Origin: Betaproteobacteria bacterium
GTDB taxonomy: Bacteria > Pseudomonadota > Gammaproteobacteria > Burkholderiales > Usitatibacteraceae
Direction: 5' to 3'
Assembly (NCBI GenBank): GCA_016790765.1
Contig: JAEUMZ010000044.1
Span: 1 to 52,516, forward strand
Length of the DNA stretch: 52,516 nucleotides
In this document: positions 14,188-42,449 of the stretch, piece after piece
Numbering within the stretch: the stretch's first letter is position 1
Layout: each line of letters starts with the position of its first letter
Notes under the pieces: model-generated
The model's input: the letters and a program-made list of their open reading frames with translations, nothing else
Told to the model about the DNA's origin: nothing
The model's database searches: none
Made by a program: the position numbers and the translations under genes

Positions 14188-14315
14188 TCCGCCGATGAAC
14201 GCCGGTGTTGCGCCGATGGACGCCGATAAAGTCAAAATCGATTTTGCGCATGGTTTCATCGGCGTTCATCGGCGTGCTTCTATCGGCGTGCTTCTATCGG
14301 CGTCCATCGGCGGAC
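14188..14315. repeat. Decamer-based inverted repeat, copy A
   Basis: Between the AmpG-like and NagX-like genes. The left arm carries GATGAACGCC and GATGGACGCC units; the right arm carries the reverse complement ATCGGCGTTC and ATCGGCGTCC units plus two direct ATCGGCGTGCTTCT 14-mers (about 14282-14309). The arms could form a long, imperfect stem around a short centre at about 14230-14250. Related copies lie at 33317-33457 and 41043-41187. Confidence 0.7.
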
Positions 14316-33274: not shown

Positions 33275-33316
33275 TTGTTGTGCTCCCTTCGCTACTGGAA
33301 AAACGAAATCCGAAGC

Positions 33317-33457
33317 CACTGATGAACACAAAAGAACGCAGATGAAACACTAGCGCTGGCGCGGCGTTTGTGGCACTTTCCTCTCGGAAGGTGCGCCAAT
33401 GCTTGAGTTTGGCTAAAGCGCTTCCAGCAATCTGTGTTCATCTGTGTTGATCTGCGG
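33317..33457. repeat. Decamer-based inverted repeat, copy B
   Basis: The left arm at 33317-33345 reads GATGAACACA, AAAGAACGCA, GATGAAAC in ten-base steps. The right arm at 33430-33457 reads ATCTGTGTTC, ATCTGTGTTG, ATCTGCGG. Over 28 bases the arms are complementary at about 22 positions; about 85 bases lie between. It fills the space between the SlmA-like gene and the end of the HerA-like gene. Confidence 0.8.
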
Positions 33458-40241: not shown

Positions 40242-41015
40242 TTGGCGGCGACCATTCCTTCCCGCGCGCCGCAGCGATTCGACATCAGTGCACGCGTCGA
40301 GCCGGGGCGCCTGCCCGCGGCGATCCTCGCCGGCTTGGTGCACCTGGGATTTTTCGCCGTGCTGGTCCTGGGCGTGTCGTGGCAGGTGAGGCACCCGCCG
40401 CAGGTGGTGGCCGAGTTGTGGGAGCAGCTGCCGCCGCTGAAGGTGCCCGAGCCGCCGCCGCCGGAGCCGGAGAAGGTCGTCGTCAAGGATGAGCCGCTGA
40501 CGGTCAAGCCCGACGTGGCCGCCGCGCAGAAGGAGGACATCGCGCTCAAGGCGCGGAAGGCGAAGGAGCAGCGGGAAAGGGAAGAGAAGGAACTGCTCGA
40601 AAAGAAGAAAAAGGCCGAAGCCGAGAAAAAGAAGCGCGAGGAGGAGGCCGCAAGAAAGGCGCAGAAAGCGGCCGAGGACAAGGCGCGCGCCGAGCAGGCC
40701 GAGCGTGAGGCCGCCGCCCAGGCCTCACGCAACGCGGCGCTCAACGACTATGCAAGCCGGATCCGCGCCCTCATCACCAGCCGCGCCAATATTCCCGACA
40801 CGGTATCCGGCAAGCCGGCGGTCCAGGTGAAGCTGCGCCTGCTGGTCAACGGCGCGGTGTTCGATGCCCAGGTGGTGAAGCCCTCCGGCAACCGCGTCTA
40901 CGATGAGGCCGTGGAGCGCGCCATCAACGGCATCCGCAACTGGCCGCTGCCCGCGAATGCGGAACTTTTCGGCGGCCGGCGTGAACTCATCCTCAATATT
41001 GAACACGAACGGTAG
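40242..41015 (+). CDS. tolA: Cell envelope integrity protein TolA
   Basis: A 257-residue protein spanning the periplasm. It has one N-terminal membrane segment (AAILAGLVHLGFFAVLVLGVSW), a Pro/Val-rich stretch, a long charged helix (about 85-165; runs such as KAKEQREREEKELLEKKKK) and a TonB-like C-terminal domain (KLRLLVNGAVFDAQVVKPSGN, RRELILNIEHER). It links the TolQR motor to Pal and TolB. The only start matching the N-terminus is TTG 40242, directly after the tolR stop with GGAG six bases upstream. Confidence 0.93.
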   Translation: MAATIPSRAPQRFDISARVEPGRLPAAILAGLVHLGFFAVLVLGVSWQVRHPPQVVAELWEQLPPLKVPEPPPPEPEKVVVKDEPLTVKPDVAAAQKEDIALKARKAKEQREREEKELLEKKKKAEAEKKKREEEAARKAQKAAEDKARAEQAEREAAAQASRNAALNDYASRIRALITSRANIPDTVSGKPAVQVKLRLLVNGAVFDAQVVKPSGNRVYDEAVERAINGIRNWPLPANAELFGGRRELILNIEHER

Positions 41016-41042
41016 CTTGCCGTGCACAACCAAGAGGCCTGG

Positions 41043-41187
41043 CCACAGATGAACACGGATGAACGCGGATTTCCCGATGGCTTCAGAGCGCTGCGAGCCT
41101 TGCCGGTGCCGAGTATTGCGAAGCGATCCCCAATCATGAAAGGGAGTGTGCGGGTCTTATCTGTGTTCATCCGTGTTCATCTGTGGC
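41043..41187. repeat. Decamer-based inverted repeat, copy C, inside the tolB 5' end
   Basis: The left arm at 41043-41070 (CCACAGATGAACACGGATGA and on) and the right arm at 41160-41187 are complementary over about 27 bases with two mismatches. Unit length is ten bases (GATGAACACG). About 90 bases lie between. The tolB start codon is in the spacer and the right arm is translated as part of the TolB signal peptide. Confidence 0.9.
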
Positions 41188-42449
41188 TCATGCTGTTGTT
41201 TTGCGGGCTTGCACCGGTTCACGCCCAACTTGTCATCGACGTCACCACTTCCGCCGGGCGGCAGATTCCGATCGCCATCATGCCGTTCGCCAAGGAGGAC
41301 ATGGCGCCGCAGAACGTGACGCCGGTGGTCGGCAGCAACCTGGCGCGCACCGGCTTGTTCCGCATCGCCAACACCACCGGGTTGAGCAAATTACCCACGG
41401 CGCCGTCGGAAATCAATTTCCTCGACTGGTCGAGCCGCGGCATGGAGGCCCTGGTGATCGGTGCGATCGAGCCGCTGCCCGACGGCCGCTACTCGGTCAG
41501 CTTCCGGCTGTTCGATGTGGCCAAGCAGATGCAGACGGCGGGCATGAGCTACACGGTGGCTGCCACCCAGCTGCGTGCCACGGCACACAAGATTTCCGAC
41601 GAGATCTACGAGAAGTTGCTCGGCGAACGCGGCGTGTTCTCGACCAAGATCGCCTATGTGTTGAAGCGCGGCAACACGTTCGAGTTGCAGGTCGCGGATG
41701 CCGACGGCTTCAACCCGCAGGCTGTGCTGAAGTCGGTCGAGCCGATCCGCTCGCCCAAGTGGTCGCCGGACGGCACCAAGCTCGCCTACGTATCGTTCGA
41801 GAATCGCAAGTCCTCGGTGTTCGTGCAGGACCTGGTGACCGGGCAGCGGCGGCAGGTGGCCAATTTCAAGGGCGACAACTACGCACCCAACTGGTCGCCG
41901 GACGGCAAGACGCTGGTGGTGGCCCTGTCCAAGGATGCCATCTCGCAGATCTACACCCTCCCCGCCACCGGGGGCGAGGCCACGCGCGTGACGCAGAGCA
42001 GCAGCATCGACACCAATGCCACGTTCAACGGCGACGGATCGGAAATCATCTTCGTGTCCGACCGCTCGGGGGGGCCGCAGCTCTACAGCGTGCCGGTGGG
42101 CGGCGGCACCGTCAAGCGGCTGACCTTCGAGGGCAGCTACAACGTCAACCCGCGCATGAGCCCGGACGGCAAGCTGGTGGCATTCATCGCACGCGAGGAA
42201 GGGCGCTTGCGCGTGGCCACGCTGGAGCTGGCCACCGGCCAGGTGACGGTACTTACCGACGGCCCGCTCGACGACAGCCCGAGTTTCTCGCCCAACGGCC
42301 GCACCATCCTCTATGAATCCAAGGCGGGCGGTCGCGGTACGCTGGGCGCGGTGTCCGCGGACGGCCGCGTCAAGCAAAAACTCAGTTCCGCGGCCGGCGA
42401 CGTGCGCGAACCGGCGTGGGGACCGTACGGAACATCCGGTGCGAGATGA
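41136..42449 (+). CDS. tolB: Tol-Pal system beta-propeller protein TolB
   Basis: A 437-residue periplasmic protein: signal peptide, N-terminal TolB domain (about 31-165; LVIDVTTSAGRQIPIAIMPF) and a six-bladed propeller with repeats such as SPKWSPDGTKLAYVSFEN, NYAPNWSPDGKTLVVALS and SPSFSPNGRTILYESK. It binds Pal and TolA. The signal peptide MKGSVRVLSVFIRVHLWLM and on to VHA is partly encoded by a decamer repeat arm (LSVFIRVHLW), so the 5' end seems to have been rebuilt by a repeat insertion. The ATG at 41136 has no good SD. An upstream in-frame extension to 41022 exists but would bury the signal. Confidence 0.93.
   Translation: MKGSVRVLSVFIRVHLWLMLLFCGLAPVHAQLVIDVTTSAGRQIPIAIMPFAKEDMAPQNVTPVVGSNLARTGLFRIANTTGLSKLPTAPSEINFLDWSSRGMEALVIGAIEPLPDGRYSVSFRLFDVAKQMQTAGMSYTVAATQLRATAHKISDEIYEKLLGERGVFSTKIAYVLKRGNTFELQVADADGFNPQAVLKSVEPIRSPKWSPDGTKLAYVSFENRKSSVFVQDLVTGQRRQVANFKGDNYAPNWSPDGKTLVVALSKDAISQIYTLPATGGEATRVTQSSSIDTNATFNGDGSEIIFVSDRSGGPQLYSVPVGGGTVKRLTFEGSYNVNPRMSPDGKLVAFIAREEGRLRVATLELATGQVTVLTDGPLDDSPSFSPNGRTILYESKAGGRGTLGAVSADGRVKQKLSSAAGDVREPAWGPYGTSGAR

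What the first reader, a model, noticed from the sequence alone, without database searches (positions are those of the whole stretch)
41043..41200. A repeat element has become the TolB signal-peptide coding region
The inverted decamer repeat (arms 41043-41070 and 41160-41187, two mismatches in 27) spans the start of tolB. The start codon ATG 41136 lies in the spacer and the right arm is read as LSVFIRVHLW, the hydrophobic core of the signal peptide that continues to VHA. The same arm sequence family occurs as non-coding DNA at 33317-33457. Seen directly: the repeat, the frame, the lack of an SD at 41136. Inferred: a repeat landed in the 5' end of tolB and was adopted as an export signal. A stem between the arms would also bury the start region, so it may control tolB translation.
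Basis: partly seen in the sequence, partly recalled or inferred. Interest (0 to 1): 0.72.

Follow-up and report, generated by a model that had tools for sequence, protein, structure and literature searches.

The report
Repeat element fronts TolB signal peptide
A small inverted-repeat element of a family with many copies in this bacterium's genome lies across the start of the tolB gene with its end in the gene's reading frame, so it likely inserted there and likely encodes the front of the predicted tag that exports TolB, as similar repeats likely do for other exported proteins in related bacteria.

Summary
A 146-bp element (arms 41042-41070 and 41159-41187, 27 of 29 positions complementary) lies across the 5' end of tolB; its right arm is in frame as SVFIRVHLW, just before LMLLFCGLAPVHA|QLVID. 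The decamer family is abundant in this genome (102 loose matches, reversed control 0) and patchy elsewhere (exact arm in 9 of 399 genomes of the order). None of 10 readable congener tolB genes has it. Seven of nine in-frame start codons put the right arm in the leader; the two that do not leave 12 or 10 residues. By comparison with other cases ATG 41049, in the left arm, is the likelier start. It is not a one-off: another TolB (P0002) reads both arms in frame; in another family 6 of 11 dacB leaders run out of repeat arms, one insertion being shared by three species; several TctC receptors show the same. A repeat-derived signal peptide was proposed in 2007 for one Yersinia gene, so this is a new, recurrent variant. 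Translation and export are untested.

The parts
40242..41015 (+). tolA-like gene upstream; stop TAG 41013-41015
   Evidence: PF13103 TonB_2 51.7 bits, cut-off 22; TIGR02794 tolA 35.3 bits, below its cut-off 59.45; name rests also on position before tolB
41034..41037 (+). GAGG, SD-like, 11 nt before ATG 41049
   Evidence: anti-SD duplex -5.8 kcal/mol
41042..41187 (.). decamer-type inverted-repeat element
41042..41070 (.). left arm; contains ATG 41049, read MNTDERG in the tolB frame
41071..41158 (.). spacer, open in the tolB frame; contains ATG 41136
41159..41187 (+). right arm, read SVFIRVHLW in the tolB frame; GTG at 41163, 41173 and 41183, one in each frame
41049..42449 (+). tolB from the start judged most likely (left-arm ATG)
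   Evidence: TIGR02800; start is an inference
41187..41225 (+). LMLLFCGLAPVHA, hydrophobic stretch and predicted cleavage site; its first base is the last of the arm
   Evidence: judged by eye and the conserved AQ[LV]xID junction; no signal-peptide predictor was available
41226..42446 (+). mature TolB
33316..33457 (.). second T/C-type element of the window, arms less perfect

Best explanation
A 146-bp decamer-type inverted-repeat element lies across the start of tolB with its right arm in the tolB frame; it likely inserted there and is likely translated as the front part of TolB's predicted signal peptide, the hydrophobic core and cleavage site being likely older tolB sequence. Shown: the element, the frame, the dispersal of its family in this genome, its absence from the readable congeners, and the same arrangement in other genes. 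Inferred: that the right arm read outwards works as a ready-made 5' coding end, because its ten-base units hold no stop in any frame and put a GTG in each of the three, while the left arm adds ATGs. Such insertions would survive mainly in genes for exported proteins, whose leaders tolerate many hydrophobic N-terminal sequences. The start is most likely ATG 41049 in the left arm (about 0.45), otherwise one of GTG 41022, ATG 41136, GTG 41148 or GTG 41163 (TTG 41100 and GTG 41106 less likely); all of these translate the right arm or most of it.
For: Element and frame. Family dispersed in the genome: 49 forward and 53 reverse matches with up to 3 mismatches, reversed control 0. T/C arm in 1 of 13 genomes of the genus, this one; no decamer at the tolB 5' end of 10 of 10 readable congeners. 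Seven of nine in-frame starts read the right arm; the others leave 12 or 10 residues with SD duplexes of -1.5 kcal/mol. P0002, a TolB of another organism, reads MNADER...SAFTRVHLR, both arms in frame. dacB in the genus of G169: 6 of 11 leaders run out of repeat arms; G169, G414 and G417 share one insertion whose coded part is 90.0, 96.7 and 90.0% identical between them against 77.8, 80.7 and 81.1% for the mature part. TctC receptors L159 and L218 have no in-frame start upstream of the GTG inside the arm; L221 and L290 have a left-arm ATG.
Against: No call shows translation, cleavage or export. The start is unknown, and in a folded RNA ATG 41049 and GTG 41163 would be buried. The long tolA-to-mature distance (210 nt) is no proof of insertion: G004 (213 nt) and G012 (229 nt) have it without repeats. 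An ATG-led frame through such an element is common (204 of 375 oriented readings; 0.60 in a shuffled-spacer simulation), so an open frame is not evidence of selection. P0001, nearest by mature part (92%), has another leader. Element-coded parts are not always better kept: TctC L221/L290 71.7% against 75.8% mature, and L226/L307 has 1 synonymous and 3 nonsynonymous codons.
Confidence: 0.8

Rival explanations
1. The element is untranslated 5' RNA: tolB starts at ATG 41190 just after the right arm, and the open frame through the arm is an accident.
For: ATG 41190 is in frame. Arms are stop-free in every frame, so an open frame costs nothing.
Against: It would leave MLLFCGLAPVHA, 12 residues with no basic residue, and an SD duplex of -1.5 kcal/mol. 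In dacB L163-L165 and TctC L159, L218 and L221 no such later start is near, so there the arm must be read if the genes are expressed.
Confidence: 0.12
2. The element matters as RNA: the stem between tolA and tolB controls message processing or tolB translation, and the coding is a by-product.
For: Arms pair at -53.7 kcal/mol and the region folds at z -4.8. NEMIS stems of Neisseria are reported to be cut by RNase III (PMC2229807, passages).
Against: Any insertion of this family brings the stem, so the stem alone shows no role. The differences between dacB G169 and G414 include changes on one arm only (by eye). Not exclusive with the coding reading.
Confidence: 0.2
3. The junction is an assembly error of the draft genome.
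For: The genome is a draft in 216 contigs, 80% complete, and repeats can be misjoined.
Against: tolA-like and tolB genes flank it in the order seen in the congeners, and the spacer differs from the other copies printed. P0002, in another record, shows the same arrangement.
Confidence: 0.03

Closest known systems
RU-2 (YPAL) element as part of the predicted signal peptide of YPO1552 (Delihas 2007, PMC2759123; section 16 and passages seen)
   Different: One gene for a 144-residue putative exported protein there; here conserved envelope genes (tolB, dacB, tctC), several insertions, another repeat made of 10-nt units, and an insertion shared by three species.
Rickettsia palindromic elements, RPE (seen through passages of the review PMC2229807)
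   Same: Palindromic elements found in frame inside protein genes, many of them conserved.
   Different: RPE as described there are 105-146 bp units inside reading frames; here the element sits at the 5' end and would provide start and leader. No RPE sequence was compared.
Correia/NEMIS elements of Neisseria (passages of PMC2229807)
   Same: Non-autonomous inverted-repeat elements beside genes with a strong RNA stem; one size class has reading frames fused to genes.
   Different: NEMIS is listed with 24-bp terminal repeats and target duplication; here arms of tandem 10-nt units with variable spacers, and no duplication seen by eye at tolB.

Membership tests
MITE-like small mobile element | Short, non-coding, many dispersed copies | tested here: met
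   102 loose matches in the genome, reversed control 0
MITE-like small mobile element | Terminal inverted repeats | tested here: met
MITE-like small mobile element | Target-site duplication at the insertion | tested here: inconclusive
   none seen by eye in the flanks of the copies; no empty site of the same species was available
MITE-like small mobile element | A partner transposase with matching ends | tested here: inconclusive
   only Y1 transposases were tested: arm within the fetched flank in 1 of 30 loci; other transposases not tested
REP/REPIN moved by Y1 (RAYT) transposases | Repeats flank the Y1 gene | tested here: not met
   1 of 30 loci from six genomes
Rickettsia palindromic element | Sequence similarity to RPE | not tested
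   no RPE sequence was compared
Sec signal peptide (TolB leader) | Basic n-region, hydrophobic core, small residues at -3 and -1 | tested here: inconclusive
   by eye only: R before LMLLFCGLA, then VHA before Q; no predictor available
Sec signal peptide (TolB leader) | Cleaved and directs export | not testable with these tools
   needs proteomics or a reporter fusion
TolB | Curated equivalog model over its cut-off | tested here: met
   TIGR02800, 486.8 bits, cut-off 343.15

The most novel reading that the evidence does not exclude
Decamer inverted-repeat elements are portable leader cassettes: the left arm ends upstream translation and offers an overlapping ATGA restart, and the right arm is a stop-free, hydrophobic, start-bearing exit in all three frames. 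They have repeatedly replaced the start and signal-peptide front of exported-protein genes (tolB, dacB, tctC) in several bacterial families, and in dacB a borrowed leader has been kept across species.
Probability: 0.4. Interest if true: 0.8.

Novelty: new variant of a known kind. Interest (0 to 1): 0.62.

Why it matters
Where new signal peptides come from is rarely visible. Here the donor would be an identifiable repeat family, the recipients are conserved envelope genes, and orthologs with and without the element exist, so the gain of an export leader from a mobile repeat can be tested directly. It also warns that N-termini such as MNTD... or SVFIRVHLW... may be repeat-derived and that start calls near such repeats need checking.

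Tried and rejected
Searching the protein collection with the first 40 residues of the 41136 form gave 4 candidates and none at E 10 or less; the full-length search worked. A link to Y1 transposases was tested and dropped. I first held an open frame from left arm to right arm to be improbable; one search showed it is common (204 of 375 readings; simulation 0.60), so it is not used as evidence. The tolA-tolB distance was dropped as evidence because G004 and G012 have as long a gap without repeats. One origin for all T/C-type dacB arms by simple descent is not what the tree shows: it needs three changes, although the shared left-arm text argues for one insertion with later losses or exchange of the 5' end. 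A crude signal-peptide filter gave 32 rows, many of them spurious frames; of its rows I use only those with a Pfam family. Literature: the statement about arm strings rests on (0 papers; 1 paper, a Staphylococcus study seen in the listing only). PMC3110155 was seen as passages only, PMC2996958 in a listing only.

Full report
What is there. Between the stop of the tolA-like gene (41013-41015) and the conserved start of mature TolB (QLVID, from 41226) lies a 146-bp inverted-repeat element, 41042-41187: two 29-nt arms built of 10-nt units (TTCATCYGTG and its complement), 27 of 29 positions complementary, with an 88-nt spacer. The right arm with up to 3 mismatches occurs three times in the window against none expected. 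The gene is tolB (TIGR02800, 486.8 bits). Of the six matches to it in this genome the window's is the only full-length one among those listed.

The repeat family. A loose pattern with up to 3 mismatches gives 49 forward and 53 reverse matches in the draft genome and 0 for the reversed control. Copies are mostly inverted pairs with varied spacers, some of which share short motifs. There is a T/C type (as at tolB) and a GGCG type (as at 14189-14313). The T/C arm with up to 2 mismatches is found in 1 of 13 genomes of the genus, this one. A looser pattern with up to 1 mismatch is found in 18 of 28 genomes of the family. The exact arm is found in 9 of 399 genomes drawn from the order, in 6 of 158 genera, and in 2 of 120 drawn from the phylum, this genome included. 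So it is patchy and abundant where present, as a mobile element would be. No mobiliser was found: Y1 transposase genes have an arm in the fetched flank in 1 of 30 loci from six genomes; other transposases were not tested.

Relatives of tolB. Of 12 congeners, 10 have a readable tolB 5' end (G009 starts within the gene at a contig end, G007 holds a part). None of the 10 has a decamer with one mismatch or fewer from 300 nt before to 50 nt after the start of mature TolB. The nine close loci read (L031-L038, L062) have the same leaders as nine of these and are not counted again. Single decamers, likely chance, appear in four more distant loci (L090, L092, L093, L101). Leaders in this group vary freely: among 134 homologs (the best 120 listed of 7959, and 14 new ones) they are 15 to 70 residues long, median 33. 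One of the 134, P0002, has the same arrangement: MNADER...SSAFTRVHLR, then LLLILSLAMAAATPSHA|QLIID. The other 133 do not match the pattern used; P0003 begins MNSDHR, which may or may not be a remnant. On the tree of mature parts the window groups with P0001 (92% identity, another leader; support 84/36), then P0002, then P0003. So the element is either independent in the two genes or was lost in P0001.

Where translation starts. Nine in-frame ATG, GTG or TTG codons lie between the tolA stop and QLVID. Best anti-SD duplexes are -3.0 (GTG 41022), -5.8 (ATG 41049), -2.2 (TTG 41100, GTG 41106), -1.7 (ATG 41136), -7.9 (GTG 41148, with no spacing), -8.5 (GTG 41163, 12 nt away) and -1.5 kcal/mol (ATG 41190, TTG 41196). 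The first seven translate the right arm, wholly or nearly so. The hydrophobic stretch LMLLFCGLA follows the arm, so the arm gives the front of the leader with its basic residue, not the core. As RNA the arms pair at -53.7 kcal/mol and the region folds at z -4.8; in that fold ATG 41136 is exposed while 41049 and 41163 are buried. Comparison favours the left-arm ATG: it is the first residue of P0002 as held in the collection, the nearest upstream ATG in dacB L163 and L165, and the only ATG upstream of the arm's readout in frame in TctC L221 and L290. This is an inference.

Parallels elsewhere. Reading outwards from arms in other genomes uncovered the same thing in other genes. dacB (PBP4, TIGR00666 238.3 bits, cut-off 107.8): of 11 loci in 12 genomes of the genus of G169, six leaders run in frame out of repeat arms and five are plain. 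G169, G414 and G417 share the T/C arm and the left-arm text, hence one insertion; G417 has extra DNA in the spacer. G418 has a TTCGTG-type repeat, and G088 and G416 a CTCTGTG-type repeat (types and frames judged by eye). The coded part is 90.0, 96.7 and 90.0% identical in the three T/C pairs against 77.8, 80.7 and 81.1% for the mature part. The dacB tree needs three changes for the T/C label, so losses, gains or exchange of the 5' end occurred. In G414 the upstream reading frame ends at a TGA that overlaps the dacB ATG inside the left arm, and plain relatives such as G041 also have an ATGA overlap (by eye). TctC receptors (PF03401): L159 and L218 have no in-frame start upstream of the GTG inside the arm; L221 and L290 have the left-arm ATG; in L226 and L307 the nearest upstream ATG lies in the spacer. 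Across the six ortholog pairs the element-coded part has no frame gap, but in L221/L290 it is less conserved than the mature part (71.7 against 75.8%).

How often. In 351 arm registers (overlapping registers of one arm count apart, and L163-L173 came in through the dacB search) there are 35 arm-through frames of at least 110 codons without ATG, GTG or TTG in the next 20 codons. A simple codon-position GC filter keeps 7 and drops 28. The 7 are four rows for three dacB genes, TctC L221, DUF2069 membrane protein L352, and L320 with no Pfam family. Those with a family are exported or membrane proteins, but they are few, not independent and partly found by a targeted search, so this is a hint, not a test. 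The arm explains why capture is easy: its consensus is stop-free in all frames with a GTG in each, a property that 7% of composition shuffles and 19% of random tandem decamers also have, and eight readings of it have positive mean hydropathy, 0.46 to 2.11. An ATG-led frame through the whole element exists in 204 of 375 oriented readings, so openness alone shows no selection.

What speaks against. Nothing here shows translation or export, and no signal-peptide predictor was at hand. Synonymous excess in element-coded parts is weak (dacB G169/G414: 4 synonymous and 2 nonsynonymous codons; P 0.03 to 0.10 by assumption); other pairs give 1/0, 2/1, 1/0, 1/3 and 6/13. One assembly shows this tolB junction.

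Known ground. Delihas 2007 (PMC2759123; passages, and section 16) described RU-2 as residues 1-30 of a predicted signal peptide in YPO1552; the review PMC2229807 (passages) covers RPE and NEMIS. So the kind of event has been proposed before. New here, as far as reach, are this repeat family as a leader source, the conserved envelope genes it enters, its recurrence, and its retention across species.

Noticed in passing
L163-L173 (dacB, genus of G169): The dacB 5' end carries repeat arms of three different types in 6 of 11 species, always in frame with the leader; it looks like a hot spot for such insertions.
   Followed up: partly
L117:1920-2106 (G000 contig C120): A T/C-type element whose right-arm end holds the GTG that would start a glycosyltransferase-like frame (GTGGCTAACCTC...); gene name judged by eye only.
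   Followed up: no
L165, left arm before dacB: The upstream gene reads into the left arm and its TGA overlaps the dacB ATG (GGATGAGA), so the decamer itself makes an ATGA stop-start overlap.
   Followed up: partly
window 14189-14313: A GGCG-type element of the same decamer architecture, which is the more numerous type among the matches listed for this genome.
   Followed up: no
L226 and L307, spacer before TctC: The nearest ATG upstream of the arm lies in a stretch translated ILACARMT that resembles another common repeat (resemblance recalled, not tested).
   Followed up: no
L352:204-581, minus strand: A DUF2069 membrane protein (PF09842) whose frame runs out of a repeat arm with no start codon in the next 20 codons.
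   Followed up: partly
P0003: A TolB leader beginning MNSDHR, similar to the left-arm readout MNTDER or MNADER but without a right arm; possibly a remnant.
   Followed up: no
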